This document shows positions 1-20,553 of a DNA stretch of 23,274 bases, piece after piece. The translations under genes were made by a program, and so were the position numbers. Each line of letters opens with the position of its first letter. The first letter of the stretch is position 1. This DNA comes from a virus, in IMG/VR virus record IMGVR_UViG_3300007514_000067, positions 1-23,274 of that record; one strand, 5' to 3'. The notes beneath the pieces were generated by a model that searched no databases, had not been told where the DNA came from, and saw only the letters and a list, made by a program, of their open reading frames with translations.

Positions 1-3000
1 GGACTAAGTTTGTTTAATTCTTGTGACACACGGTCAGGTAAAATACGTTGAGCGCCACCAGCAGTAGGTATTTTCACACTCACAGTAGCCTGACCACCAC
101 CACGCACACCCGCTTCCAACAACGACACATAATTTTGCAAATACTCATCATCGCTAGCCTCCGCTAATTTGCGGGCAGCCTCAATAAAAGAAAGATTCTC
201 TCTGCTCGCCTTCTCACCGACACGTTTCGTGATGTTCGCTGCCTTAATCATATGCGTAGGGTTAACACCATCTAACCATGCGTTAAAGAAAGCACCGAAA
301 ACGTTACGGAAAACGAATCCGGGTGTAGCGATCATTCCTGCTTTAAGGAAGTTTTGGAACTTGTCATAATATTTCAGGAAACCTTCAACTTCTCTAGGAG
401 TGTTCATTCGTTTAAACGCTTCAGCAGCAGCAACCATGCCCTCATTCAACTCTGTGTTGCCTGTTGCTATACGCCAAGGACCCCAGTTGGACATGCCGTC
501 CAACACTGAATCCATCCAAGTGTTGATATCTTGTTCATTCATCGCTCTTGGATTTGCTATAGGATCAAAGCCTCCCAATCTGAAAGATGGATCATAACCT
601 TGCACATTACTTTCAGTTAAAACAACTCGTTTTCGAGTAGGTATGCTAGGTAGATCAACACCTGCTTCTTGCAAGGAGGCTACACCACGTTGCATACCGG
701 ACAAGTTCATAAAATCTGCTGCTTCACGAGCCAAAGACTGTGCTTCTATCTCAGCGACGAGAGCCATTTCTTCTAACGCTGCAATATCACCAGCGGATTG
801 GGGGCTTTCAGACCCAGCAACACGTGTCCGTAACGCTTCAGCCTCTTGACGCAACCTTTGAGCCTCAGCAAACATCTTCTCAGACTTACCAGTAAGGTCT
901 TCTGTAGCCGCTACGATCTCTTCGTTAGTCATATCGAACTGTTTATATCTGACGGACGGTTTACGTCCAATACGTTCAATAGGATCTAAAGTCTCAGATA
1001 GTAGTTCTGATTCCTGTAACCGTGCCATACGATTAAGAACATCATCGAGAAGCCCTCTGGCTTCATCCATGTTGATCGTGCCATTAATAGGAATATCAAT
1101 AAAATTGTTGTGTCCAAACACATCGTCGCCTTTAGCGATGTTCATGTATTCTTCCCACGATGCCAAGGAATGATATAATTTGCTATATGATTGTTTTTGA
1201 TCTTCCCACGATGATGTCAAGGGTTTGTGTTGATTAATAATGTTTTCAACATCACTCATTACTGCAATAGACCGATCAGTTAACTTAATTTGTTTAGCAC
1301 TCTCATTAACTAACTTCAATTTTTCTACTACATTATGTCCAGAATCTTGAATTAGATGCCCCAACTCTTTGTTACCTGCTTGTAAATCTTGAACAATAGT
1401 CACAGGTTTACGAGCAACTCTCATAGACACAGAAGGACTAATTAAAACTTCCGCTTCAGGAATTCCTTCATAGGCTAAAATTGGTCCGTCCCGCATCACC
1501 ATAGAAAAAAGAATGTCTTTCTTTTTAACAGTGAACGCTTCCATCCTAGACTCACTCCTAATGTCGAAACCTGCTGGGCGTGAACCCTGCATTCCAAATA
1601 TGCCGGCTGCTTCAGGATCAAAAGCAGGGTTCAAACTAAAAGAAGGAGCGGTTTCTTGGCTCCCGAAACGGTAAACAGTTATTGTTTCTGGAAAGTCCGC
1701 TAACGATTCTTGGCTGAGTTTATGTAATTCTTTTTGAACGGCTCTTATCTCTTTAACACTTGGTTTCAGTTGATAAAAATCGCTTCTCGGATCAAGTATT
1801 CCTTCCAACACATCATCAGCGAAGAGATCACCACCTTCATCAACATAATCAATCGCAAAATCTGGATCCTGCATGTTTCTTAACTGGAAATATGCTCTAT
1901 AAACCTCTGGAGTTATCTTTTTTAAACCTTTAGCATCTATGACACCAGCATGAAACCCCTCTACACTGTCCTGACCTATACCCAATAACTCACGTAACAA
2001 AATAGTGTCACCGTCTTGACGGTTATTAAAAATCCTGTCTAAAACTTTGTTAACGTTTTCATTCTCTAATTTAGATAACCCTTTAAAGACAACCGGCTCA
2101 GAAGGAGAATAACCAATCTGTTTAGGTATCTGACGACCTACTAAACCTTCAGCCAACGAAGTAATCCTATGTTCAAAAGTCGTAATCTGAGGAGCGATCA
2201 CATTATTGAAATCGTCATGCAACTCCTGATACCTAGCACCCAACTCGTACTGTCGTAACAACAACTCGTCAACCTTGTCAGGAACTCTGCCATCAGGCTG
2301 TAGAGTATTACCGATAGCCGCCAACTCGCGTCCTATATCATCCAACTCGTCAGCAATGTTTTGCAACTCGCCAGCGACACTAACCTGACTTAAAACAAGT
2401 CTCTGATATTGATCCATTTCCTGTATGCCACGATCAACTTCATCTATCAAAACTTGTCTAGCCCAATCCTGATCTATTTGATAAACCAACGATCCATCAG
2501 GTCCTTTAGAAAATAGTTGAGGAAGTTTTTGAACTACTTCATCAACAAACTCTGGAGTGCCGTCTGAAATTGCTTGAGGAAATAGTCCACGTATAACATA
2601 ATGTTCCACCAAATTAGATACATCATCAGTCGCATCACCAGCATTAAGATGAAGCAACAACCGTTCAGTAAACTCAGGATCAGATTCCGCTATCCTCGCA
2701 AACAACTGATCAAGCGCACCAGTGCGTTCAGCATTCTTAAAGAAAGCACCTGTACCAACCATGTTGGATCTAACAGGAGTCAACATTTCTAAATCAACAA
2801 TAGTGGCATGGAACTCTCTGAGTTTTCTCGGTATTCTCGATTCTGCAACACCAATAGGCATATCATCCCTGAACTTCTCAGGAAACTCCAACCTACGACG
2901 GTAATTCTCCAAAACCCGAGAAACTTCCTTCAAATCCTCCTCACTAGTAGCCCTATAAGCCATAGCCGCAGTCTGCAACCTAGTCAAACGCTTAACACCC

Positions 3001-5408
3001 TTAGCCACATCACGAGCCTCAACAGCAGCAGCCTCAGCCACCATCTTCTCAGACTCCCTCCTCAAAGCATTCTGCATACTCTCAGGGAAACTCTCAATAG
3101 GCCAACCCTGACGTTGCAACTCAGCCAACCAAGCATTATTAGTGAGATCCATACCCACACCAGAACCCCAATTGTCCAACACTTTGAACAAATTGTCCTC
3201 ATACATGGCTTCACCAAAAACATCCATACTCAAATCGTTAATCTGCTGACGGACAGAAACACCAGCCTCACGAGGAGCCTCAACAATAAAAGGCTTATTA
3301 GACCCCTTAGCCTGATTGATAACCAACTCACCGTTATGAGTAGTTATTCTTCCAGCGCTACGAGCATCAGCCACAGCCTGCCCTTGTAGCGTCACAGGCT
3401 GACCCGGCCCCCAACCCCTGCGCTTAGACGACTGGCTTCTTAACATTCCAGAAATATCGAAATCATCCTCATAAATTTTGCTACTCATACCGAAACGTTT
3501 ACGCATAGATTGTGTCATACGACGAGGAATAAACCCTTGACCTTCCCTAGCGAGAAGGTCTTGCATGAGTTGTTTAAAGGCGGGGAGATCTTTTTCGGCT
3601 ACATCCCTGACACCTTTCATCATGCTGAGAACATCGTTAGCATATTGTACTAGCACTTCGTCAGGGAGTTCCCGCACCTCGTGCGGAAGGTTCTTAAACC
3701 ACTGGTTGTTACGGTTAATGCCTGTTGCTACATTATCAGCATTCAAGATTAGCATCTCTAATCGTGCAATAGCCTCCGCTAACTTGTAAGCATCTGAAGA
3801 AGTGATCTGCGCACCCACAACAGCAGAACGATTAAAAATAGCGTTACGCCCTTTTTTAACAATCTCTCTCGCAAGATTGCTTCGACCTTTAGCATACCTG
3901 TGCGACGATTCCGCAGCCCAAGCCCCAGCAATAGTCTCAGGGTTATTAGACAACATTGCCTGTTTCCACGCCTCATCAGATGGGCTGAATCTGTTGCGCC
4001 ACATTTTAACCAACCCGCCTTGCAGTTCATCACGAACCTCAGGGGTTAAAGTCTTCCAATACTCAGGATTAAAAACTTTTCTAGCGTCCTCTGTTTCACT
4101 CTCGGAAAGTTTCTGCCACAACCTCCAAGGTTTAACAGAACCAAAAACAGGCAAGTTCCTTAAAGTGCGTTGAATGAAATCCGCTTGACGGAAAACAGCA
4201 CCACCCTTAACACCCGTAGGTAATTTAACTTCTCTGGGCGCACGAGTAACAGTACCAACAGTCTTTCTTATATCTTCAGGAACCTGAGATGCTCTACCTT
4301 TACGCATGTCTTTAACAAAATCTTTATACTGCGCATCCGTGTAACCCCTCTTGTAAGCAACAGGAACGTTACGGACACGCTGACCATCTAACAAACGATG
4401 CAAAGGAGTGTCATCAGGGAACACGCGACGAGCCATTTTTGCAGCCCCAGTTAACCCAGCACCAGCAGCATCCAAATATTTGCCAACACCCTGTAAACTA
4501 CTATCACCAATAGCGGTACGAGTAGCGCCACGCATCGTAGCACCAGTACCCTTTAACCCCTCGAAAACCATTTTGTCAAGATTCCTACCAGCACGAGAAA
4601 CAGGACCAGTGAAAGGCACACGTAAACGCATACCAGCATCCAACCCCATCATCCTAGCAACACCCTGACCAGCCTCAGTTTTGTTCAAAGACCGAGAAAT
4701 AGAAGACATCGACCTGCCATCACGACCAGCCAAAATAGCGGCATCAATCGCTTTCTTCATCTTACCAGCAGAACCTTTACCAAGATTCTTAACACCAGCC
4801 TCGTTACCTAAACGAACCAAATCTTGAGGATTCAACTGACCTAATTTGTATAACTCGTCACCCATCTTTTTGTAGCCACCCATGTTACGAGCAATAACAT
4901 TATAACCACCCATATAAGTCAACGGATCAATAGCAACATCACCAATAAAACCGACAACACGATCCAAATGAATATTATCCGCCAACACACTGGCACCCAA
5001 AGCGCCAGCAGTTATACCACCAGTAAACGGAGCCAAAGCCATCAAACCCCAACCGACAGCAGTACGTTCCTCACGAATCAAATCACCGAAACCATAATGA
5101 GATTTAGTCTGATCCCACCAATCAGACGTATCAAAACCTTCACCTTGGAACCAGTCGATACCCTCTTTGAGGGTACTCGCAATAGCAGAACGACCCCAAT
5201 CAAGGACACCTAAAGCAGAAAGAATACCGCCCTTGCCCGGACTTGGAGCCTTAGGAGTACGAGGACCAACGACAACTTGAGATGATCTGGTAGGTAACTG
5301 TAAATTATTCAACCCACTAGGTTTAGGAGGTGTAAAAGGAGTAGGTATTTTACCTAACTTGGCTTTATTTAAAGCCTGCTGAACCTGCGTGTATACATTA
5401 GTAGCCAC
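1..5408 (-). CDS. Giant virion/ejection-type protein with a putative ADP-ribosyltransferase-like domain (partial, C-terminus beyond window)
   Basis: I translated this frame by hand from a GTG at 5408 and found no stop down to base 1, giving at least 1,802 residues. The GTG lies three bases past the stop of the upstream gene, and the next in-frame ATG is over 100 residues later. What is visible: a Pro/Ser-rich N-terminus (residues 20-60); a Gly/Ala-rich hydrophobic stretch (about 116-160) ending in DVAIDPLTYMGG; long helical charged regions; coiled-coil-like segments near 1003-1068 and 1493-1567; and an aromatic/hydrophobic segment near 1670-1710 (FLKAGMIATPGFVFRNVFGA). Residues about 1240-1330 carry VYRFG (R1247), SFS (S1256, S1258) and EAEVL (E1318, E1320), the R / S-x-S / E-x-E order of ADP-ribosyltransferases. 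Size, late-operon position and the absence of a tape measure suggest an internal virion protein ejected with the DNA; this is inference. I saw no lysozyme or transglycosylase motif or N4-type RNA polymerase motifs. The ORF is certain; the function is moderate to weak. Confidence 0.85.
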   Translation of the reverse strand, partial: MATNVYTQVQQALNKAKLGKIPTPFTPPKPSGLNNLQLPTRSSQVVVGPRTPKAPSPGKGGILSALGVLDWGRSAIASTLKEGIDWFQGEGFDTSDWWDQTKSHYGFGDLIREERTAVGWGLMALAPFTGGITAGALGASVLADNIHLDRVVGFIGDVAIDPLTYMGGYNVIARNMGGYKKMGDELYKLGQLNPQDLVRLGNEAGVKNLGKGSAGKMKKAIDAAILAGRDGRSMSSISRSLNKTEAGQGVARMMGLDAGMRLRVPFTGPVSRAGRNLDKMVFEGLKGTGATMRGATRTAIGDSSLQGVGKYLDAAGAGLTGAAKMARRVFPDDTPLHRLLDGQRVRNVPVAYKRGYTDAQYKDFVKDMRKGRASQVPEDIRKTVGTVTRAPREVKLPTGVKGGAVFRQADFIQRTLRNLPVFGSVKPWRLWQKLSESETEDARKVFNPEYWKTLTPEVRDELQGGLVKMWRNRFSPSDEAWKQAMLSNNPETIAGAWAAESSHRYAKGRSNLAREIVKKGRNAIFNRSAVVGAQITSSDAYKLAEAIARLEMLILNADNVATGINRNNQWFKNLPHEVRELPDEVLVQYANDVLSMMKGVRDVAEKDLPAFKQLMQDLLAREGQGFIPRRMTQSMRKRFGMSSKIYEDDFDISGMLRSQSSKRRGWGPGQPVTLQGQAVADARSAGRITTHNGELVINQAKGSNKPFIVEAPREAGVSVRQQINDLSMDVFGEAMYEDNLFKVLDNWGSGVGMDLTNNAWLAELQRQGWPIESFPESMQNALRRESEKMVAEAAAVEARDVAKGVKRLTRLQTAAMAYRATSEEDLKEVSRVLENYRRRLEFPEKFRDDMPIGVAESRIPRKLREFHATIVDLEMLTPVRSNMVGTGAFFKNAERTGALDQLFARIAESDPEFTERLLLHLNAGDATDDVSNLVEHYVIRGLFPQAISDGTPEFVDEVVQKLPQLFSKGPDGSLVYQIDQDWARQVLIDEVDRGIQEMDQYQRLVLSQVSVAGELQNIADELDDIGRELAAIGNTLQPDGRVPDKVDELLLRQYELGARYQELHDDFNNVIAPQITTFEHRITSLAEGLVGRQIPKQIGYSPSEPVVFKGLSKLENENVNKVLDRIFNNRQDGDTILLRELLGIGQDSVEGFHAGVIDAKGLKKITPEVYRAYFQLRNMQDPDFAIDYVDEGGDLFADDVLEGILDPRSDFYQLKPSVKEIRAVQKELHKLSQESLADFPETITVYRFGSQETAPSFSLNPAFDPEAAGIFGMQGSRPAGFDIRSESRMEAFTVKKKDILFSMVMRDGPILAYEGIPEAEVLISPSVSMRVARKPVTIVQDLQAGNKELGHLIQDSGHNVVEKLKLVNESAKQIKLTDRSIAVMSDVENIINQHKPLTSSWEDQKQSYSKLYHSLASWEEYMNIAKGDDVFGHNNFIDIPINGTINMDEARGLLDDVLNRMARLQESELLSETLDPIERIGRKPSVRYKQFDMTNEEIVAATEDLTGKSEKMFAEAQRLRQEAEALRTRVAGSESPQSAGDIAALEEMALVAEIEAQSLAREAADFMNLSGMQRGVASLQEAGVDLPSIPTRKRVVLTESNVQGYDPSFRLGGFDPIANPRAMNEQDINTWMDSVLDGMSNWGPWRIATGNTELNEGMVAAAEAFKRMNTPREVEGFLKYYDKFQNFLKAGMIATPGFVFRNVFGAFFNAWLDGVNPTHMIKAANITKRVGEKASRENLSFIEAARKLAEASDDEYLQNYVSLLEAGVRGGGQATVSVKIPTAGGAQRILPDRVSQELNKLS

Positions 5409-5410
5409 GA

Positions 5411-7831
5411 CTACTCTTTAAAAAGGTTCCCACCATAGATATCCCAATTTTCTTGACCTCTTAACTCAGGATTCTGGGCTGGCGTATCATTTCTTGTATC
5501 TTCAGGGAACCCACCCCATTCAATAGTTCCATCTGGTTTAGCAGTGTAAGTAAGACCTCTAGTTGCACTTACCGTAGATTTACCCATCACAGGTTGCCCC
5601 GTGTAGTTAGCCCAAACTAAAGCAGCATCAGGATCTCCATATGCCTTTTCAGAAATCATCCTTTCAAGCACATGCTTTTTGTCATAACCCGTAGGCAAGT
5701 AGTCATCATCTCCGGGTAAAATACCCGTTCTCTCACTAAGAGCAATTATTTCATTTGCCTCTTGATCCCACTCTGCAAAACGTGACCCCGCTACTCTCAT
5801 TATAGCATTTTCGATAATCCCCATAGGATCACCGAGATCACCAAATTGCTGTTTAGCGAGATTTGCTTCCAACACAGGACCTATTTGAGAGAACTGACTA
5901 GGAGTCATCCAATACTGACCATCAATAACTTCAATATTAGGTAGATTTATAGGTTCAACTTCGCCTGTAATAGGATTTGTTATCTCAAAATCTTTAGCGT
6001 AAAAACCAGACGGAATAGGCTCACCATAAACATCATCATCATCATCCATATTCCACGGTCTGCCAGTAGCAGGATTAAGACCTAAATCGTACCAACCCTT
6101 ACCACCCTCACGCCACATCTCCTCATAACGCTCCGCTTCCAAATCAACAGCATCAACAGCACGAGCCTCCTCAGCCTCCATGATATCCATCTGAAGAGCC
6201 AACAAATCTTTCTCCTGACGGGCAGCATTAGCCTCACCAATAGTCATACCAGCATAAGGACCCTGAGTCATAAACCCATAAGGTCTACCAGTAGCAGGAT
6301 TAATACCCTGCGCTAAACGATCCAACTCGGATTCACCAGCAGTAAACTCTTGCCCCGCTATACGCTCACCAGTTTGATAAGCCATCTCACCAATAGGAAT
6401 ATCCCCACGCATACCACCAAATATGGCATTAGGATCAGCCCCAAGATAATCGGCTACATCCCTAGCAGACAAAGCATCCTCACGCACCTCAGCGCGCCTA
6501 TCAGCCGTATCAATCTCAGCGCCCAAAATAATCTCAATAGCCTTACTTACAAGATCAGACTTGTAGCCTGCCATAATGTTAGTAAGCATCGCGTCACGGT
6601 CATCTTTAGCCAACTTACCTATACGGTAAAGAGAATCAATGTACTGGTATTGGGCATCTATCTGATCCCCATACAAAGTATCTATAGTGTCGAACTCCAT
6701 TTGAGAAGAAACAATATTTTCTGCCAAAGCAAGGTTGCCTATAACAGCCTTATCTGCCGCACGAGCAGTCTTGGATTTAGATTGTTCATCTTTCCAAGTT
6801 GCAAGAAGACGATCCATCTCGCCCTCTTTAAGAGGTTCACCCGTCATAGGATCTAACACAGTGTACTGATTAGCGAAAGTAGCATCTAACTGCTTCTGAG
6901 CCTCGTTTTCAATTATATCAATTTGTTCAATACCAGAATCTCTAGCAGCATTAGTAGCATTAGTAATTTCATCTAATCTGCGTTGGATAACATCCAACGC
7001 TTCAGTTTGGCTATCAACAAAATTGCCAACAGGAGTCAACTTTGGTTTAGGTTCATCGGGTCCACCAAAAGGAGTTTCACCACTGCCGTCTCCTCCGTTA
7101 CCTCCTACTTTATCAGGAACACACACACCATTCTCAGCATGAAATCCGGGACCGCATTGGACTGTGCCATCATCTGGTTGCGTTATCGTAGGAGGAGCAT
7201 AATCTTTTTGAAATTCAGGTGAATCCATCCAAGGTAACGTCGCTGAACCTGTATCAGCCAACCTTTGTTGAGCCGCTAAAATCTCAGGACCAAAATCTTG
7301 CATAACATCAGACTCAGGACCTTGACCGGCAAGGTAATTAAACCAATCTTCCGTACCAACAACATTCAAAAAATCATCCAACTGTTGTTGAGTGCCACCC
7401 CGTCCTTCAAAGTAACCTTCACTCGCTAAAAAATCTGTAGCAGCCTGTTCCCTCATCGCTATACGAGGATCAACAACCATCTCACCAGCATCAAACGCCG
7501 CTTGAGTCATCTCAGCAGGAACCGTAGTAGTAGTTTTAGGTACAGTATTAAACACATTAACAGGATCTATTAAATCGACACCAAATCTGTTTTGATCAAT
7601 CATCTGATCCATCCACTGCTCATTAGTCAAAGCAGGAGCAGGTGCAGTAGGAGGAGAAGGATTATATTGTATTCCTAAAATATCCCCAAAATTACCTGTG
7701 TTTTTGCTAACAGGAGGAGGACCACCAATTGCAATAGGGGCATTAGGATTTATTACATCAACAACTTCGCCATCAACAATGTCAAAACCTGCTTCACGTA
7801 AAGAATCTAAATTAAATCCACCAAAACCCAT
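5411..7831 (-). CDS. Large modular structural-type protein, 806 aa, function unknown
   Basis: The ATG at 7831 overlaps the upstream TGA by one base (TGATG), and the stop lies three bases before the giant gene. The N-terminal 220 residues are Pro/Asn/Thr-rich and probably flexible. A small Cys knob follows, CGPGFHAENGVCVPD (C226 and C237), of the C-x-P-G-x-n-G-x-C type seen in phage and extracellular proteins, then a Gly-rich linker (240-260). Residues about 275-460 are strongly helical and charged, likely coiled coil. The heptad NPATGRP occurs twice (511-517 and 586-592), flanking another acidic helix, so this part may be an internal duplication. An Asp run follows (DDDDD near 596-600), then a mixed C-terminal domain. 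I do not recognise the family. Its place between small virion-type genes and the giant protein suggests an internal core or ejection protein. Confidence 0.85.
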   Translation of the reverse strand: MGFGGFNLDSLREAGFDIVDGEVVDVINPNAPIAIGGPPPVSKNTGNFGDILGIQYNPSPPTAPAPALTNEQWMDQMIDQNRFGVDLIDPVNVFNTVPKTTTTVPAEMTQAAFDAGEMVVDPRIAMREQAATDFLASEGYFEGRGGTQQQLDDFLNVVGTEDWFNYLAGQGPESDVMQDFGPEILAAQQRLADTGSATLPWMDSPEFQKDYAPPTITQPDDGTVQCGPGFHAENGVCVPDKVGGNGGDGSGETPFGGPDEPKPKLTPVGNFVDSQTEALDVIQRRLDEITNATNAARDSGIEQIDIIENEAQKQLDATFANQYTVLDPMTGEPLKEGEMDRLLATWKDEQSKSKTARAADKAVIGNLALAENIVSSQMEFDTIDTLYGDQIDAQYQYIDSLYRIGKLAKDDRDAMLTNIMAGYKSDLVSKAIEIILGAEIDTADRRAEVREDALSARDVADYLGADPNAIFGGMRGDIPIGEMAYQTGERIAGQEFTAGESELDRLAQGINPATGRPYGFMTQGPYAGMTIGEANAARQEKDLLALQMDIMEAEEARAVDAVDLEAERYEEMWREGGKGWYDLGLNPATGRPWNMDDDDDVYGEPIPSGFYAKDFEITNPITGEVEPINLPNIEVIDGQYWMTPSQFSQIGPVLEANLAKQQFGDLGDPMGIIENAIMRVAGSRFAEWDQEANEIIALSERTGILPGDDDYLPTGYDKKHVLERMISEKAYGDPDAALVWANYTGQPVMGKSTVSATRGLTYTAKPDGTIEWGGFPEDTRNDTPAQNPELRGQENWDIYGGNLFKE

Positions 7832-11960: not shown

Positions 11961-13706
11961 TTAACGCAATCTCCTAGTTCTATACATTCCAACAACCGAG
12001 GTCACACCCCACTTGCCTGTAGCATCAGCAGCAGGAAATGACACAAACCTCAAACTAATAGCCTTCGCTGTCCCAATTGACCCCCAACGGACAACCAAAT
12101 ACTTGTCTGTAGTGCCTTCTTGCGCCCATTCAGACGTATCCCATATACCATTACCGGAACCAGAAGGATCAGAATCCCAAGTTGCCTGTGTTATACCAGT
12201 GAAAGTACCTGATTGTATTTGTGAAGAATACGCTAAATTGTAATCTTTATACGCATACATGCTTAAAGCAACACTGTTATCTGATAGCAAAACAGTTCTT
12301 GTTTTGCCCCATCTTTTCAAAAATGTAGGACGGTTACCTTCAAACCAACTGGTCTGATAATAAGCATTAATAACATTAACAGCAGAAGCACCATAATCGT
12401 CAGTGTCCACATTCTGCTCTATTTTCGCTATCCTTATAGGCTTATAAGCGGCACCTGCTTCTATCTCAGATACAACCGCTATAGGAGAATGATCTTCCCC
12501 ACTAGGACGATACGATAACAATGCACGAGCATTAATGTCATAACGCACCCAAGCGCCCGTGTTACCTAAACTAGGATCCCACATAAACACGTTTCTACGG
12601 TTTGTTTGTTGAGATTCAGAAATGTTTTCAGCCGACTGATAGTCAACTGAAACCCACAGTTTCTCATCATACCACATCAAAGAAGGAGCATTATCTAAAC
12701 TTAAAGCAGGGTTACCAAGATCATAAGTCATAGCAGGATATATACGTTCAAACACATACACAGGTTCATTCTCAGGGTTTTGTAACAAATACACTCCCTT
12801 TTCTGCATACCAGAAAAAGATCCCCTGTCTACCCGCTATAGGTTTACAACCATCACGGTTACCCACCGCTCTCGTAAGATTACGCACTTCAAAAGTGTCT
12901 CTATCAAAACCATAAATAGCATAAACAGCGTTCTGTTTAAACACTAAAAGACGGTCTTGATCGGAAATAATTCCCGTTATGAAATCTCCATCTTCACCCA
13001 AATCAATGTCTATATAATCACTTGCTGTCCAGTTATCACCATCATTAGTTTTAGAAAAACGAACCCGATTAGGATTATCATCTTGAGTGACTTCTGTTAA
13101 ATGTGCTGCCCACACCATTTCATTCCATGTAGCGACATATCTAGCAAGAGGAAAAATACCATCACCACCCAAAGGGTTCCACCCACCCATAAGACCAGTG
13201 GTTCCATCCCAACGTACACAACTGTAATTGTACGGAGTTGTAGTACCAGACCCATTAGTGTAATAAGTGTAATTATTAAAAGTCACACCCTGCGGAGAAC
13301 GATCACCAGTAAATTCCACATCCGCACCACTATTTTGAATAGTGCCATCAAAATCACCATCAGCACCAGTGTTATACATCATCACTGTTGTATTCTTTAC
13401 ACTGTCATAAACACTTGCCAAAACCTGATTCTCACTAAATTTATAATGAACATTCAAACCCGTGATAATACCATCAGGATAAAGACTAGAATGATTAACC
13501 GCCTTAGGATTAATACGCTTAATACCATCCCTGCGACGAATACCACCCCTAGGGTCAACAGAAACATTCAACAACTCAGGAGATTCAGTCTCACCAAGAT
13601 TAAACTGATCAGCCCTAAAGTTTAACCCGCCAGTAAAATTAGATTTCTCATCGTAACGGTATGAATCAGTGGTTGGAGGAGGAGGTAAAGATACTTGTAA
13701 AGCCAT
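11961..13706 (-). CDS. Tail nozzle/tail tubular protein B-like, 581 aa
   Basis: The ATG at 13706 follows the upstream TAA directly. The N-terminus has the hallmark NFTGGLNFRADQFNLGETES and a PRGGIRRRDGI stretch shortly after, typical of large tail tube/nozzle or 'stabilisation' proteins of podoviruses. The body is rich in aromatic beta-strands (GFDRDTFEVRNLTRAVGN, KGVYLLQNPENEPVYVF, TGAWVRYDINARALLSY), consistent with a beta-propeller-like fold, and it ends in TSVVGMYRTRRLR. In podovirus late operons this gene follows the head-tail connector, exactly as here. The size and N-terminal motif support the family; T7 gp12 equivalence is by gene order rather than clear identity. Confidence 0.88.
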   Translation of the reverse strand: MALQVSLPPPPTTDSYRYDEKSNFTGGLNFRADQFNLGETESPELLNVSVDPRGGIRRRDGIKRINPKAVNHSSLYPDGIITGLNVHYKFSENQVLASVYDSVKNTTVMMYNTGADGDFDGTIQNSGADVEFTGDRSPQGVTFNNYTYYTNGSGTTTPYNYSCVRWDGTTGLMGGWNPLGGDGIFPLARYVATWNEMVWAAHLTEVTQDDNPNRVRFSKTNDGDNWTASDYIDIDLGEDGDFITGIISDQDRLLVFKQNAVYAIYGFDRDTFEVRNLTRAVGNRDGCKPIAGRQGIFFWYAEKGVYLLQNPENEPVYVFERIYPAMTYDLGNPALSLDNAPSLMWYDEKLWVSVDYQSAENISESQQTNRRNVFMWDPSLGNTGAWVRYDINARALLSYRPSGEDHSPIAVVSEIEAGAAYKPIRIAKIEQNVDTDDYGASAVNVINAYYQTSWFEGNRPTFLKRWGKTRTVLLSDNSVALSMYAYKDYNLAYSSQIQSGTFTGITQATWDSDPSGSGNGIWDTSEWAQEGTTDKYLVVRWGSIGTAKAISLRFVSFPAADATGKWGVTSVVGMYRTRRLR

Positions 13707-14513
13707 TTACCATTCCCAAGAGTAACGCAAACGATTGGGAAGAATAGAATTTGAACGCCACCTGCTAGCATTAACCGAATTTAATAACACTGGTTGTGGA
13801 GCAGGAGTGTCCTCAAACCTAGCACGAAGATTCTCCAACTCGCTGATAAACTGGGCGTAATACTGTTGACCCATACCAGCATCTTCCTGCTGTTGATAAC
13901 ATCTATAAATCACATACAAAGAAAGAACAGGATCAAAAGCCTCAGGTAAATCAGGAGTGTTAGCATCCGCTATTGTATTACGATATATCGGTGTTTGACC
14001 ACCGAAATCAACAGCGTTACGATAAGCCCTAACATACAAAGTTTCAACACCTGTAGGTGTGGGGTACAACCTCACCGATTGACCACTCACAGCAGCCGAA
14101 GCGCTACCACCTTGATTCCACATTGAGAAATAGTAAGGTGTGCCACCCGGAGTACGATTCAAAGGATAAATGATGTCCCCGACTTCGTAACCGATATATT
14201 CTAAAATGTGGCTATCTGTTTTTATTGCAGCGATTTCTCTTAGACTCAGATTGGTTGGTGCAGAACCACCAGTAAAAGCAACACCATCATGTGTGATACT
14301 CATATCAGTGGAAATTTCTGCCATGGTGTAATCTTTTTGACCATTAACAGTATCAAACGATAAAGCCACTTCATAAAACGGCCAACGTTTCTCTGAGTAG
14401 ACAATCAGATCATACCCTTCACGAATAAATTCGTTCAGAGTAGCATCTGTAATATCTGTTGTATCAATGTCAACTACTGCCCTGCAATAGTCACGCAAAC
14501 TGCTTAGTTGCAA
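13707..14513 (-). CDS. Head-tail connector / tail tubular protein A-like, 268 aa
   Basis: The ATG at 14513 begins MQLSSLRDYCRAVVDID; the pattern of a short helical start, then TDATLNEFIREGYDLIVY and EKRWPFYEVALSFDTV, matches head-tail connector/adaptor proteins of podoviruses (T7 gp11-like, P22 gp4-like by role). The central part is beta-rich, with VRLYPTPTGVETLYVRAYRN, and the C-terminus helical (LYVIYRCYQQQEDAGMGQQY). Length fits the family (about 190-270 residues). It lies between the capsid block and the nozzle gene, the expected position for the ring joining portal to tail tube. No start ambiguity. Confidence 0.88.
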   Translation of the reverse strand: MQLSSLRDYCRAVVDIDTTDITDATLNEFIREGYDLIVYSEKRWPFYEVALSFDTVNGQKDYTMAEISTDMSITHDGVAFTGGSAPTNLSLREIAAIKTDSHILEYIGYEVGDIIYPLNRTPGGTPYYFSMWNQGGSASAAVSGQSVRLYPTPTGVETLYVRAYRNAVDFGGQTPIYRNTIADANTPDLPEAFDPVLSLYVIYRCYQQQEDAGMGQQYYAQFISELENLRARFEDTPAPQPVLLNSVNASRWRSNSILPNRLRYSWEW

Positions 14514-14766: not shown

Positions 14767-15732
14767 CTATGCAGGTGTGATACCATACAAGTATGCTTGA
14801 CGGGCGCGGTTACTCGTAGTTAAGTTGCCGTAGCAAAGAATCTGAGAGTAAACCGCATCTGTGTCGGTTGGGCGCACGAACGGGGTTGGTTTAAACCATA
14901 CGTCGCTGTGGGCCACTAACTGAAGGTACTTGGTGTTAAGCATATACATTTTGCCTTCACCAGCAAGAGTACCATCAAATGTTATAGGACAACCCTTGAA
15001 TAGAAGATTTTGGAATCCACCATCAGCCATGTCGGTGTCAGTGTACCTAATCTGTCCCTCAAGAAGACCTTCGTATGTTTCATACTGTTTTTGTCCTGTG
15101 ATTATAATTGTTGGCTGGTCATTACCAACAGAAGCATCATTGTATGATGTAGCCATCTTTGCAAGAGTTAATGCTCCACCCACGTTTTGAACTTGTGATC
15201 TCCACCACGAGTTGTCAGCGTCAGTGGCATCAATACCCGCAAGAGCGGCTGTGCCATCATCATTGCCAAGACCGACTAGAGCCGATAGACCCATCCAGTC
15301 TTTACCACCATTGCCTGTGCTGTTACCGAAGAACATGGTGTTCATGTTCTCAATAATAGTTTCCTGAGTTTGGAAAATCTTTCCCTCAAGAAGGTCAATG
15401 ATTTGTGCTTCACCATTGTTTTTGGCTTCTTCAATACCGTTGATTGTTACTGTGGCAGCATACTGTCTCCACGAATACTCAGCAGCACTAATGCCTGTTT
15501 GAGCAGTTGTGGAAATAGGATCCGTACCAGCGTAAGAACCAGCAGTAGAGTTTTTACCATATATAATTGGAACGACAATATTTGCACCACCTGAAACACG
15601 CCTAATTGTCTGACCATTTGTCAAAGCGTAGAACAGTGGTCTAGCCGTGAAAATGTTATCAGTCAGTTTAGGGATATAGTTTTTCAGAGTGGTGGAAAGA
15701 ATCTCGTTAAAGTCAGCGTTACCTGCTGCCAT
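14767..15732 (-). CDS. Major capsid protein (HK97-type fold expected), 321 aa
   Basis: The ATG at 15732 has GAGG about eight bases upstream. The N-terminus is NADFNEILSTTLKNYIPKLT, followed by a Gly/Ser-rich loop (RRVSGGANIVVPIIYGKN), a long helical spine (KIFQTQETIIENMNTMFFGN) and a beta-rich A-domain-type region with PTIIITGQKQYETYEG and KGCPITFDGT near the end. This order of N-arm, E-loop, spine helix and peripheral domain is the HK97 layout, and 321 residues is normal for podovirus capsids. It directly follows the scaffold gene. There is no N-terminal protease-type delta domain, so a separate scaffold is probably used. The most abundant virion protein by expectation. Confidence 0.92.
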   Translation of the reverse strand: MAAGNADFNEILSTTLKNYIPKLTDNIFTARPLFYALTNGQTIRRVSGGANIVVPIIYGKNSTAGSYAGTDPISTTAQTGISAAEYSWRQYAATVTINGIEEAKNNGEAQIIDLLEGKIFQTQETIIENMNTMFFGNSTGNGGKDWMGLSALVGLGNDDGTAALAGIDATDADNSWWRSQVQNVGGALTLAKMATSYNDASVGNDQPTIIITGQKQYETYEGLLEGQIRYTDTDMADGGFQNLLFKGCPITFDGTLAGEGKMYMLNTKYLQLVAHSDVWFKPTPFVRPTDTDAVYSQILCYGNLTTSNRARQAYLYGITPA

Positions 15733-15760: not shown

Positions 15761-16477
15761 TTATTTAGCAGCGAGTTCCCTTTTGGCAATTTCAAATGCC
15801 TCATGGATTGAAGACGGCTTTTCAATAGTAGAGGTCGAAGAACCCGCCTGTTTAGAACCCGTAGGTTCTACAACTGATGCGTCCCTCTTTGCTTCTGTAC
15901 GTTCCTGTTCTTTTTCCAATTTGTTTGCTTTATCAGCAACTTCACCATAACGTAAATGTGTTAATGCGGCTTCTAAGTTTCCGATTTTATTTTTTAATGC
16001 ATGCTGAAAAAGTTCAGATTCGTCAAAATCCCCATACTTGGTTTTCAAAGTGTCAACTTGCTGCGTTAATGCTTGTTTTTTATGCAAACGATCATAACCA
16101 TCAATCCGCGCTTCAAGTTCCTTGATCTTCTTATCAGAGGTATCTTCGCTTTCCCAACTGTCATATTCCTGTTGAGCCTGCTCAGGTGTAACTCCGAAAG
16201 CCTCACCAAGAGCCTTGATTGTGCCATCTGGATCTGACTCCAAAGATTGCACTATCGCTTCTGCTTGCTGTAACCGTCTACGTTCGGAAGCCAATTCCTG
16301 CGTCTTACGGGTGTAATCCGACTGTCTTTGGTATCCGTCCCGAAGTTCTTCAAGACTGACCTCTTGGTCTACTCCATCCACCTTAACGGCGTACATTTCA
16401 CCAGAAGGTTCCTCTAAAACCTCAACTGAAGACTCTGGATTGTCCACTTCAGTGGATTCCGCTGCATCCTCACTCAT
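15761..16477 (-). CDS. Capsid scaffolding protein, 238 aa
   Basis: The ATG at 16477 has a strong AAAGGAG ribosome-binding site. The protein has an acidic, disordered N-terminus (SEDAAESTEVDNPESSVEVL), a short conserved-looking domain (YAVKVDGVDQEVSLEELRDG, then YQRQSDYTRKTQELASERRR, seen in many phage scaffolds), then a long charged helix with coiled-coil character (residues about 60-190) and a Ser/Thr linker before a basic C-terminal helix (HEAFEIAKRELAAK). A helical, acidic protein with a basic C-terminal coat-binding helix, encoded right before the coat gene, is the classic scaffold profile. Confidence 0.9.
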   Translation of the reverse strand: MSEDAAESTEVDNPESSVEVLEEPSGEMYAVKVDGVDQEVSLEELRDGYQRQSDYTRKTQELASERRRLQQAEAIVQSLESDPDGTIKALGEAFGVTPEQAQQEYDSWESEDTSDKKIKELEARIDGYDRLHKKQALTQQVDTLKTKYGDFDESELFQHALKNKIGNLEAALTHLRYGEVADKANKLEKEQERTEAKRDASVVEPTGSKQAGSSTSTIEKPSSIHEAFEIAKRELAAK

Positions 16478-16540: not shown

Positions 16541-18397
16541 TTATGATAAATCAGGTAACCCCATGTCCATTTGTCCACGGAGTTGATTCACCAACTGGGG
16601 CGGTATTTGCCCCATACCTGCTTGCATTCCACCACCCATGCCACCCATCTGAGGAGCAGATCCGGGTACAGCGCCTTCGGCTTCTGGAACTCCGGGTGTC
16701 TGCTGCATCAAATACTTGTCAGGGTCTTTAATGTCGAACGCATTTTGCAGCACATAACGTGCTATAGCCGCCGGATCAATAATCGTACCGATCATCGGAG
16801 CCATCGCATTCATCAAAGCAACCGCCTGTTGCTTACGCACAGTGTCATTTATTGGCTGTGTAGACCCAGCCTCAACACTAAAATCATACTCGCCTACAAT
16901 GTCATCCCTAGTGTAAGGAACAAACAAATCTGCACCAGCCCGTGCGCTCACACGCACAATCTGCTCACCAGTCATAAACTGTTGCATAACCTGAATAACA
17001 CGACGAGCGCATTCGCTGATACCAAGTTCAACAATCGCCAACTTCTCAGAAACCCTCGCATTACCAGCATCAGCAATAATAGACGCTTCAGTAGCAGTAC
17101 GCCTAATCTCAGGCATCTGACCACGAGCATACTCAGAAACACCAGAAACAGTATTAATGTCCTGCTCAATAATCGCAGACATATTATAAACCTCAGGAGA
17201 CAAAGGTGTTTGAGGCATCGGAATAACAACCTCACTTAAAGGCTTGTTTTCATCCACAACAGGAACAAGACGACCATCCTCATCCGACTCTAACGCTTCA
17301 CGCCCTTCAGGACCAAAAGAACGCTCGTGATACAAATACTTTCTCGCATAACGTTTACGAGCATTAACAAGTTGTGTACGAGTCATATCTAACTCTAATT
17401 GCAAAGACTCAATTGATTCCAAATCACCCATTGGATAAAAATAGTCAGGAACATCATAATTACGCAACATCACAAAAGGCTGACCATAAGCGTAAGGCAT
17501 CGGCATAGGGTCAACTAAAAACTCGTCGCTTTCTAAAGTAAACACAGCCATAGTGTTCTCTTCAATATCATAAAATTCGTAGATCGCTACTCGATCCACT
17601 TCAGTCAAATACTCTTCCTGAACAGTCCTGTCAGTATAAGAAAGAGTAGGAGAAACTCTAGAATCAGGAGTCAACCTTTTACGAACACTAGCCTTATAAC
17701 GTTTATCTTTTTTAGCCTCTTCAACAGGGCGAATAACTTTTTGACAAATCCACTGCGCATCATCTAAACATGTAGCCTCAGGGTCAATATACATATCGAA
17801 AGGAGAAACCCTTTCAATAAATGGTTGATCTTCTACAATCTCCATTGAACTATCAGGAATACCAGCAGCAATCTGTTCATCGTCAGGCAACTCTGTTGCC
17901 AACGCAGGATTTTCTGTCGCTAAAATATTTGCTTCAGCAACAGCCTCATCGAACATGACACCACGTTCTTCGTCAGTAAGCATTCTTTCCTGCTCAACAA
18001 ACTTCCAACCAACCTTTAACCATCCGTGACCAAAAATTAGAAAATCTCTAACAGACCTTTGGAAAGGTTTACGGAAATCGTGATGTCTCCACGCATAGTT
18101 AGTTATCGCTTCAACAAACGCTGCCCTGTCCTGATCTTCAGGTTCATTAGGGGAAACAACTATTTTAGGGTAGTTAACAGAAACACTAGGTGCAATAACG
18201 TTAACAGTGCTAAAGGCAAGATTAACTGCAACTAAATCATTGTTATTGATCGTAGTGTTAGGCCAATGTTTACCACGGTACAAATCAACCATGCGTATCC
18301 ACAGGTTGTCATAACCCATGTCTTCCCGCCAACGAGCAGAATCTCTCAGTTTTTGGGAAAGAATATTAAATTGTTCCGCACGGGATTTGCGCGCCAT
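16541..18397 (-). CDS. Portal protein, 618 aa
   Basis: The ATG at 18397 overlaps the upstream TGA (TGATG). The size and sequence fit a podovirus portal. An N-terminal helical region contains YDNLWIRMVDLYRGKHWP, followed by NLAFSTVNVIAPSVSVNYPK and the wing domain (RSVRDFLIFGHGWLKVGWKF). Then come ERVSPFDMYIDPEATCLDDA, a typical portal stem-proximal motif, a long central helix region (MTRQLVNARK-type segment around residues 335-350) and a Gly/Met/Gln-rich C-terminus (GGMGGGMQAGMGQIPPQLVN), common in barrel or tail ends of portals. It forms the dodecameric DNA gate and terminase docking site. Part of the gene (about 17,000-17,240) shows the G/T-ending codon bias described in the findings. Confidence 0.92.
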   Translation of the reverse strand: MARKSRAEQFNILSQKLRDSARWREDMGYDNLWIRMVDLYRGKHWPNTTINNNDLVAVNLAFSTVNVIAPSVSVNYPKIVVSPNEPEDQDRAAFVEAITNYAWRHHDFRKPFQRSVRDFLIFGHGWLKVGWKFVEQERMLTDEERGVMFDEAVAEANILATENPALATELPDDEQIAAGIPDSSMEIVEDQPFIERVSPFDMYIDPEATCLDDAQWICQKVIRPVEEAKKDKRYKASVRKRLTPDSRVSPTLSYTDRTVQEEYLTEVDRVAIYEFYDIEENTMAVFTLESDEFLVDPMPMPYAYGQPFVMLRNYDVPDYFYPMGDLESIESLQLELDMTRTQLVNARKRYARKYLYHERSFGPEGREALESDEDGRLVPVVDENKPLSEVVIPMPQTPLSPEVYNMSAIIEQDINTVSGVSEYARGQMPEIRRTATEASIIADAGNARVSEKLAIVELGISECARRVIQVMQQFMTGEQIVRVSARAGADLFVPYTRDDIVGEYDFSVEAGSTQPINDTVRKQQAVALMNAMAPMIGTIIDPAAIARYVLQNAFDIKDPDKYLMQQTPGVPEAEGAVPGSAPQMGGMGGGMQAGMGQIPPQLVNQLRGQMDMGLPDLS

Positions 18398-18998: not shown

Positions 18999-19667
18999 CT
19001 AACGTGTCCCACGTACCGTATTTTGACCAATTCTCATCGGTCCTTCTTCTTTTTCAGACGGAATTAACCGCCTAAACCAATCTACAGTCCAATAATCGTC
19101 CTGTTTCGTAGTGAATTCTGGCATAAACGCATACTGACGCATCTCATTAGCCAACGCAAGAGCCATAACACGGTCATCATGCGGGCTACCAGACATGCTA
19201 CCACGGTCATTACGCACATAAGTTCTTAATTCTGCGATAGTAAACCTATCATGCAAAACAAGTTCCTCATTGCGTAAAGCCATACCCAAATCATCAATCA
19301 ATAACGGTTTAGTAGTTCTAGTGGTTTTCCAACCAAACTCTTGAGAAATCTTAGAAGTTACTTGATTCAAACTTCTTTTACGAAAAAGATTAGGAGCGCC
19401 CAAATGACGCAACTGTGTGATCGTAGTCAAACCATGATTGTTAGACTCGACACAAGTTAAAGCATCGTTATACCATAAAGACAACAAATAAATATCGTTA
19501 GCGAAATCGTCAGGTGGAATATGTCCATGCCACACAGCAACCTGTTCACCAGTACGCACCTCCAAAACTTGAGCACAAGAATAGTCGCCATGAACTAAAC
19601 CCTCCGCAGTGTCAACACCTATACAATAAGGAACATGTCCTTGAGGCTCACGCCAAACTGTAAGCAT
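18999..19667 (-). CDS. terL: Terminase large subunit, nuclease part (separate or frameshifted frame)
   Basis: This 222-residue frame starts at an ATG (19667) inside the end of the ATPase frame, overlapping it by 20 bases. It begins LTVWREPQGHVPYCIGVDTA and carries the RNase H-like nuclease triad pattern: GVDTAEG (D19), VESNNHG (E74) and SPHDDRVMALAL (D164, D165). The normal large terminase continues straight from the ATPase into this 'x-VW-x-P-x-G-x-Y-x-IGVD' start, so the two frames are one ancestral gene split by a +1 shift. It may be a separate polypeptide (a weak AGGA lies three bases before ATG), a programmed frameshift product, or a sequencing or assembly indel; no long homopolymer is present at the junction. 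The nuclease cuts concatemeric DNA during packaging. Confidence 0.88.
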   Translation of the reverse strand: MLTVWREPQGHVPYCIGVDTAEGLVHGDYSCAQVLEVRTGEQVAVWHGHIPPDDFANDIYLLSLWYNDALTCVESNNHGLTTITQLRHLGAPNLFRKRSLNQVTSKISQEFGWKTTRTTKPLLIDDLGMALRNEELVLHDRFTIAELRTYVRNDRGSMSGSPHDDRVMALALANEMRQYAFMPEFTTKQDDYWTVDWFRRLIPSEKEEGPMRIGQNTVRGTR

Positions 19668-20553
19668 CTTTCCTAAACCTCGGAACTCTCTTATACGGCT
19701 CGTCTAAATAACCCATCTGCCCCTCCTCAATATGATTGCTCATTTCTTCCAAAGCATGCAAATCAAACACAGGGTTACCAGACTTAATAAACGCTTCTTC
19801 AGGAGTAGATGGATACTCTTGAGCCAACTGCCACGGCAACATAGATTCCTGCTTCGACTCGTACCATGACTGATCTCGGTCTTCTGTAGCAGACCAAGGA
19901 AAAAACATTGGTTTAAACTTGTTAGTACCAGTCTCAGAACCAACCCACAATTCGTGAAAAAAGTTACCAGAACCATTAGCAGTAGACAAACCTATAATGC
20001 TGCCACCAACATCGGCGACAGGTTCTATAGAAGCCCACGCTTCCTCAGGATTTGGAAGGAACGCCCATTCGTCAACCACAACCAGCGTAGCCGACTCACC
20101 TCTAGCAGGATCGGATGCTGAAGGCATCGATGTAACCAAACTACCATTGTCAAAGCCCATTTTTTGCTGATGTTCAACAAGAGATACAGGCCCCCTTTCT
20201 AACATCCATTCCGGTAAATGTTGAAAACCATACTTGGATTTTCTCAACAACAAAACCGATTCACGCTCCGTGCGTGACAAATCAATAATATTCTGATCTG
20301 GATGAAAGAACGCTAACCAAAACTGGTGGGCGGCTACAAGAGTAGTCCAGCCTATTTGTCGTGCTTTAAGAGTCAGACTGTACCTTTGGTTAGTCCAATT
20401 GTCTAACGCCTGTGACTGTGCGTCACGCAACTTGAATAATATGCGTCCATGCGCAGGGTGCGCTATATGCCAATAGTTTTCTAAAAAATGTTTCTCATCG
20501 GTTATGCACCGTCGCCATTCGGCTTCTTTTTGTAATTCTGTTAAAGTTGGCAT
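19648..20553 (-). CDS. terL: Terminase large subunit, ATPase part
   Basis: The ATG at 20553 overlaps the upstream stop by one base (TAATG). The 301-residue frame contains the packaging-motor ATPase motifs: a Walker A-like KARQIGWTT (63-71), Walker B VVVDE (D161, catalytic E162) and the coupling motif GLSTANG (188-194). It ends with YPSTPEEAFIKSGNPVFDLH and then terminates about 20 bases into the nuclease frame. In intact relatives the nuclease domain follows in the same frame (total about 500-600 residues). The ATPase motifs appear complete, so this half is likely functional. It powers DNA translocation through the portal. Confidence 0.92.
   Translation of the reverse strand: MPTLTELQKEAEWRRCITDEKHFLENYWHIAHPAHGRILFKLRDAQSQALDNWTNQRYSLTLKARQIGWTTLVAAHQFWLAFFHPDQNIIDLSRTERESVLLLRKSKYGFQHLPEWMLERGPVSLVEHQQKMGFDNGSLVTSMPSASDPARGESATLVVVDEWAFLPNPEEAWASIEPVADVGGSIIGLSTANGSGNFFHELWVGSETGTNKFKPMFFPWSATEDRDQSWYESKQESMLPWQLAQEYPSTPEEAFIKSGNPVFDLHALEEMSNHIEEGQMGYLDEPYKRVPRFRKDAYSLA

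What the first reader, a model, noticed from the sequence alone, without database searches (positions are those of the whole stretch)
1399..1692. ADP-ribosyltransferase-like signature inside a giant ejection-type protein
Residues about 1240-1330 of the open frame starting at 5408 read VYRFG (R1247), then SFS (S1256/S1258), and about 60 residues later EAEVL (E1318, E1320). That is the order and spacing of the R, S-x-S, E-x-E class of ADP-ribosyltransferases; the strand AFTVKKKDILF before the E-x-E also fits. T4 Alt is the established precedent of a virion-packaged, injected ADP-ribosyltransferase. A similar domain buried in a protein of at least 1,802 residues would be a new delivery architecture for host takeover. 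The motif is seen; the fold and activity are inference.
Basis: partly seen in the sequence, partly recalled or inferred. Interest (0 to 1): 0.7.

Follow-up and report, generated by a model that had tools for sequence, protein, structure and literature searches.

The report
ART-like cargo domain in giant phage protein
A giant protein that this uncultivated virus of bacteria probably injects into its host carries, in a stretch that related viruses fill with other enzymes, a small conserved domain with the signature of an ADP-ribosyltransferase, although its fold and activity remain unproven.

Summary
The motif is real and correctly placed: VYRFG (R1247), SFS (S1256/S1258) and EAEVL (E1318/E1320) lie in a giant gene that runs off the window; a near-identical contig gives all 2,168 residues. 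A loose R-S-E pattern is chance; the strict pattern is not. The same domain recurs in about five lineages and three architectures: giant proteins, a stand-alone ~190-residue protein encoded between portal and capsid genes, and a Chloroflexi-MAG protein. S1256, E1318 and E1320 are invariant in all 11 sequences; R1247 is kept in eight and is Gly in one lineage. The domain closes a variable slot (about residues 791-1352) between conserved blocks; other members' slots hold Fic or NUDIX enzymes. Most likely it is accessory effector cargo, probably a compact, divergent R-S-E ART-like enzyme delivered with the DNA. The ART fold is not established: two AlphaFold models are low-confidence, PDB fold search finds no ART, profile comparison with T4 ModA/ModB/Alt is negative, and R-to-S spacing (9-12) is shorter than in the R-S-E ARTs compared here (24-36). 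Verdict: observation confirmed, interpretation partly supported; new variant of a known kind (packaged phage ARTs/polyvalent proteins).

The parts
3..5408 (-). giant ejection-type protein gene, 1,802 aa in the window, truncated at the window edge; 2,168 aa in the near-identical contig IMGVR_UViG_3300009104_000047 (L004)
3063..5345 (-). conserved N-terminal block (about residues 22-782), shared with relatives that lack the ART-like domain
   Evidence: blastp of the full protein against 116 other members, (coordinates there are +3)
1353..3038 (-). variable cargo slot (about residues 791-1352); roughly 266 to 1,110 aa in relatives; other members hold Fic or NUDIX in their variable region
   Evidence: faster protein evolution than the blocks
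1374..1766 (-). ART-like domain (residues 1215-1345), at the C-terminal end of the slot
   Evidence: homologous domain in L049, L115/L026/L077/L135, stand-alone L136-L140, L141
1662..1676 (-). VYRFG, motif R1247 (strand 1)
   Evidence: R in 8 of 11 sequences, G in L115/L026/L077
1626..1643 (-). SFSLNP, motif S1256 / S1258 (S-x-[ST]-L-N-P)
   Evidence: S1256, L1259, N1260, P1261 invariant, S1258 is S or T
1506..1538 (-). AFTVKKKDILF, predicted strand before the E-x-E
   Evidence: K1296 and D1298 invariant; strands predicted
1440..1457 (-). EAEVLI, E-x-E motif E1318/E1320
   Evidence: both Glu and I1323 invariant in all 11
3..1352 (-). conserved C-terminal block (starts about residue 1353; continues beyond the window to the PFYTWTRKN motif near residue 1913)
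5411..7831 (-). 806-aa protein directly upstream, possible second internal virion protein (inference from position)
   Evidence: no match in isolates
11961..13706 (-). 581-aa protein, weak match to internal virion protein and amidase families
   Evidence: phrog_511 E 2e-4
13707..14513 (-). SU10-type head-tail adaptor
   Evidence: PF24175, 1.5e-16
14767..15732 (-). major head protein
   Evidence: phrog_9953, 1e-66
15761..16477 (-). scaffolding protein
   Evidence: phrog_3927, 8e-17
16541..18397 (-). SU10/P22-type portal protein
   Evidence: PF23899, 8e-32

Best explanation
The window belongs to a phage with SU10/P22-type portal and adaptor (podovirus-like). Its giant protein is most likely packaged in the virion and ejected with the DNA (inferred from position in the virion gene block and from size, not shown). 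Two conserved blocks flank a variable slot that different relatives fill with different modules (shown). In this clade the C-terminal end of the slot holds a domain of about 130 residues with a conserved [IV]TVYR[FY]G - S[FY][ST]LNP - KxD - E-x-E-[VLI]-[LI]-I signature (shown). I propose that it is a compact, divergent R-S-E-type ART-superfamily enzyme: Arg on strand 1 and Ser on strand 2 hold NAD+, and E1318/E1320 drive transfer of ADP-ribose to a host macromolecule (or NAD+ hydrolysis) straight after ejection, to tilt host machinery or defences (inferred). In the lineage with Gly instead of Arg the domain has either changed chemistry or kept only a binding role.
For: Domain found in about five lineages and three architectures: giant proteins, stand-alone ~190-aa proteins, and a 345-aa Chloroflexi-MAG protein. 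S1256, E1318, E1320 invariant in 11 of 11; R1247 in 8 of 11. S-x-[ST]-[LI]-N-P and E-x-E-hydrophobic-[LI] resemble STSINP and EYEFLLP of a PF03496 member, VSTSLYP and EMEVILP of T4 Alt and DEQEVMIP of ModA (the stand-alone reads DEQEVII). Slot architecture with Fic (5.5e-9) and NUDIX (to 7.6e-11) in other members. Domain absent from most members, so not a core structural part. Stand-alone version lies between terminase/portal and major head protein, the context that PMC9503650 takes as a sign of packaged ARTs. Purifying selection on the domain: dN/dS 0.08 (stand-alone), 0.12 (L115 v L077). Predicted order H-E(R)-E(S)-H-E-E-E(ExE) is compatible with an ART core.
Against: AF2 models have mean pLDDT 52.7 and 64.4; PDB fold searches list no ART; BFVD matches are uncharacterised phage proteins. 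No Pfam, NCBIfam or PHROG ART match. hhalign against T4 ModA/ModB/Alt is no better than column shuffles (10 of 60 shuffles score as high). R-to-S spacing is 9-12 against 24-36. Arg is Gly in L115/L026/L077, a lineage still under purifying selection in one comparison. No proteomics; packaging and ejection are inferred.
Confidence: 0.48

Rival explanations
1. Accessory effector or binding module of a fold unrelated to ART, in which the R, S and E-x-E positions are conserved for another reason (another enzyme, or a protein-binding domain).
For: No ART fold in PDB searches; no profile similarity to ART families; R-to-S loop too short for the helix usual there; other invariant positions (T1244, V1245, Y1246, G1249, L1259, N1260, P1261, K1296, D1298) are as conserved as the motif ones.
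Against: Order and local context of three motifs fit R-S-E ARTs; both Glu and the Ser are invariant across deep divergence; the setting (Fic, NUDIX cargo; stand-alone version in the capsid gene cluster) favours a modifying enzyme.
Confidence: 0.27
2. ART-derived domain that is no transferase any more: an NAD+/ADP-ribose binding module or NAD+ glycohydrolase, with catalytic Arg dispensable in some lineages.
For: Arg to Gly in L115/L026/L077 and L135 with S and E-x-E intact and purifying selection kept (dN/dS 0.12, L115 v L077). PMC9503650 describes ART clades with altered catalytic residues (RES).
Against: Arg kept in the window and in the other three lineages, including the most distant.
Confidence: 0.2
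3. The motif is a chance pattern in a structural stretch of an ejection protein.
For: A loose R-S-E pattern is expected about eight times in a protein of this size.
Against: Motif positions are invariant in independent architectures, including stand-alone proteins without the giant protein.
Confidence: 0.03

Closest known systems
T4 Alt, ModA, ModB (Alt/VIP2 family, R-S-E clade)
   Same: Order aromatic-R / S-x-[ST] / E-x-E-hydrophobic; S-to-E distance of similar size (50-62 v 67-72); Alt is packaged and injected
   Different: R-to-S 9-12 v 24-26; no detectable profile similarity; Alt is a separate head protein, not a module of a giant ejection protein
Polyvalent proteins of phages and conjugative elements (Iyer et al. 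2017, PMC5512222)
   Same: Very large, multidomain, probably virion-borne proteins with several effector modules, ARTs among them
   Different: Their ARTs are of the H-Y-D (Tox-ART-HYD2, PF18760) type; [quoted passage not shown] No PF18760 match here
[quoted passage not shown]
   Same: Head-packaged carrier with an effector domain
   Different: Carrier there is MuF with a C-terminal effector; here the domain is internal, between two conserved blocks of an unrelated giant protein
T7/P22/N4-type internal (ejection) proteins, N4 virion RNA polymerase
   Same: Place in the virion gene block, great size
   Different: No sequence match; the swappable slot with Fic, NUDIX or ART-like modules was not found described
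PHROG phrog_4776 (unknown function)
   Same: Only family with a recurrent weak match to the domain (L138, L141; E 0.02-0.2), over the same stretch
   Different: Sub-threshold, no function known

Membership tests
R-S-E ADP-ribosyltransferases | Arg on first core strand | tested here: inconclusive
   VYR[FY]G in window, L121, L049, stand-alones, L141; VYGYG in L115/L026/L077
R-S-E ADP-ribosyltransferases | S-x-[ST] motif on second strand | tested here: met
   S[FY][ST]LNP in all 11; first Ser invariant
R-S-E ADP-ribosyltransferases | [EQ]-x-E motif before a hydrophobic strand | tested here: met
   EAEVLI, EAELLI, EQEVII, EDEILI; both Glu invariant
R-S-E ADP-ribosyltransferases | Spacing R to S as in known members | tested here: not met
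   9-12 v 24-36 in T4 ModA/ModB/Alt and a PF03496 member
R-S-E ADP-ribosyltransferases | ART fold | tested here: inconclusive
   pLDDT 52.7 and 64.4; no ART match in the PDB
R-S-E ADP-ribosyltransferases | Detectable profile similarity to a known ART family | tested here: not met
   Pfam at E up to 10, hhalign v ModA/ModB/Alt
R-S-E ADP-ribosyltransferases | NAD+-dependent activity | not testable with these tools
   needs purified protein
Virion-packaged, injected effector protein | Encoded in the virion gene block | tested here: met
   portal, scaffold, major head protein, adaptor and tail-type genes upstream, endolysin downstream in L004
Virion-packaged, injected effector protein | Present in virions, enters the host | not testable with these tools
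   needs proteomics and translocation assay
Polyvalent proteins | Large multidomain protein with several recognised effector domains | tested here: inconclusive
   Fic or NUDIX in some members, ART-like in others; not shown together in one giant protein
ART-PolyVal (PF18760, H-Y-D type) | Match to the family model | tested here: not met
   no PF18760 hit in the giant protein or in any domain member

The most novel reading that the evidence does not exclude
A widespread family of giant phage ejection proteins with a dedicated, exchangeable effector slot between two conserved blocks, in which ART-like, Fic (AMPylation) and NUDIX modules replace one another, and in which the ART-like module founds a new compact R-S-E class that also travels as a stand-alone, capsid-cluster-encoded protein.
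Probability: 0.4. Interest if true: 0.72.

Novelty: new variant of a known kind. Interest (0 to 1): 0.52.

Why it matters
If true, phages with short tails and modest genomes carry host-modifying enzymes inside the very protein that is ejected with their DNA, and swap them like cartridges. It would extend packaged R-S-E ARTs from T4-like head proteins and MuF fusions to giant ejection proteins, and it marks a slot in which further early-acting effectors of uncultivated phages can be looked for by position alone. The stand-alone 190-aa version makes the activity directly testable.

Tried and rejected
Pfam, NCBIfam and PHROG scans of the giant protein and of the domain found no ART family. PDB sequence searches with the domain and its profile: nothing relevant. 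AF2 of the window domain and of the L141 domain: too uncertain; Foldseek on them gave no ART. hhalign v ModA/ModB/Alt: negative. tblastn of the domain and of the giant protein against 50,697 phage records: no homologue of the domain; the best-looking hits, H5 and H6, were translated and discarded as noise. phrog_4776 is the only recurrent weak match and could not be followed to true members. Two viral contigs pattern scans were wasted by an off-by-one gap in my pattern. Chance motif rejected on conservation. GNAT-like stretches seen by eye in the slots of L012, L079 and L114 did not pass Pfam for L012 (the others were not scanned), so they are not claimed.

Full report
Observation. The minus-strand frame starting at GTG 5408 is open to the window edge (1,802 aa). 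The whole gene is held in IMGVR_UViG_3300009104_000047 (99-100% identical in the matched parts, 2,168 aa) and a relative 85% identical overall in IMGVR_UViG_3300030419_000401 (2,146 aa). A bare R..SxS..ExE pattern is expected by chance in a protein of this size (87% of shuffles), the strict strand-context version is not (0 of 2,000), with the caution that the strict pattern was written afterwards.

Relatives. Among 122 open frames with it (735 to 3,384 aa where complete), the domain is found by hmmsearch only in the window clade and in L049, L115, L026 and L077; many of these frames are fragments that do not reach the slot. A profile scan of viral contigs added L135 and five contigs with the domain in another protein: stand-alone proteins of about 190 aa (L137, L138, L140), one frame with a longer C-terminal extension that looks ParB-like by eye (L136), and one with an N-terminal stretch that looks like a second ART of the H-Y type by eye (L139). 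A genome scan added a 345-aa protein in a Chloroflexi MAG (L141), 40% identical over the domain. None of 399 other Chloroflexota genomes has it, nor has any of 50,697 phage records.

Conservation. Across the 11 aligned sequences, S1256, E1318 and E1320 never vary; S1258 is Ser or Thr; R1247 is Arg in the window, L121, L049, the stand-alones and L141, but Gly in L115, L026 and L077. The motif residues were named before any alignment existed, so this is an independent test: three of three invariant with 16 invariant positions in 144, P 0.0011; four of four in the four R-bearing lineages, P 0.0003. The Gly lineage is under purifying selection in the only informative comparison (dN/dS 0.12, L115 v L077; L115 v L026 is too close to tell), as is the stand-alone (0.08). 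So loss of the Arg is real but not decay of the domain.

Architecture. Against relatives without the domain, the giant protein aligns in an N-terminal block (about residues 22-782) and a C-terminal block (from about 1353), and the part between varies from roughly 266 aa (L028) to 563 (L012), 816 (L044) and 1,110 aa (L013) (coordinates there run 3 higher). The ART-like domain ends some eight residues before the C block. The slot of L012 holds a Fic domain (PF02661, 5.5e-9, HPFEDGNGR), and L020, L059 and L081 hold NUDIX domains (to 7.6e-11) upstream of the C block. Between the two closest relatives the domain (dN/dS 0.65) and the rest of the slot (0.62) evolve faster at the protein level than the blocks (0.36-0.39). 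This is what an exchangeable cargo slot would look like. A member is encoded by an isolated phage, Cellulosimicrobium phage DS1 (1,783 aa, annotated hypothetical, followed by a peptidoglycan endopeptidase gene); in the window clade the next gene is likewise an endolysin.

Setting. Upstream in the window lie SU10/P22-type portal, scaffold, major head protein, SU10-type adaptor and tail-type genes. The stand-alone gene of L138 lies between terminase/portal and a major head protein, which PMC9503650 takes as a mark of packaged ARTs. That the giant protein is packaged and ejected is an inference from these positions and from its size; nobody has shown it.

Fold. AF2 of the window domain: mean pLDDT 52.7; of the L141 domain: 64.4, pTM 0.53, order helix, strand (VYRFG), strand (SFT), helices, two strands, strand (ExE), helix. 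The order is compatible with an ART core but not specific. Foldseek against the PDB lists no ART; BFVD gives uncharacterised phage proteins. hhalign against T4 ModA, ModB, Alt and relatives is not better than column shuffles. The domain alignment is shallow (Neff 2.2), so these negatives are weak, but they are negatives. The R-to-S distance of 9-12 is shorter than in the R-S-E ARTs compared here (24-36) while S-to-E (50-62) is ordinary.

Judgement. That this is a discrete conserved domain, accessory cargo of an ejection-type protein, is well supported. That the cargo is an R-S-E ART is the best single guess but not established; I put it near one half. The known background is packaged T4 Alt, MuF-fused ARTs and polyvalent proteins (PMC5512222, PMC9503650); [quoted passage not shown]

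Noticed in passing
L012 (slot, residues 482-576); L020 492-569; L059 582-650; L081 943-1016: Relatives of the giant protein carry Fic or NUDIX domains upstream of the conserved C block.
   Followed up: partly
L139:6559-7605, L136:6488-7579: The same ART-like domain is fused to what looks by eye like a second, H-Y-type ART (L139) or a ParB-like stretch (L136); Pfam does not confirm either.
   Followed up: partly
window 18999-19667 and 19648-20553, minus strand: Terminase large subunit is split over two overlapping frames that match adjoining parts of the same family; the DNA is identical in a second assembly, so it is hardly a simple sequencing error.
   Followed up: partly
L167 (MW590223.1 6593-11944): Cellulosimicrobium phage DS1, an isolate, encodes a 1,783-aa relative of the giant protein annotated hypothetical: a cultivable model.
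   Followed up: partly
window 5411-7831: 806-aa protein next to the giant one has no match in 50,697 phage records and no family above noise.
   Followed up: no
L115, L026, L077, L135: A lineage of the giant protein keeps the domain but has Gly in place of the Arg (VYGYG), still under purifying selection in L115 v L077.
   Followed up: partly
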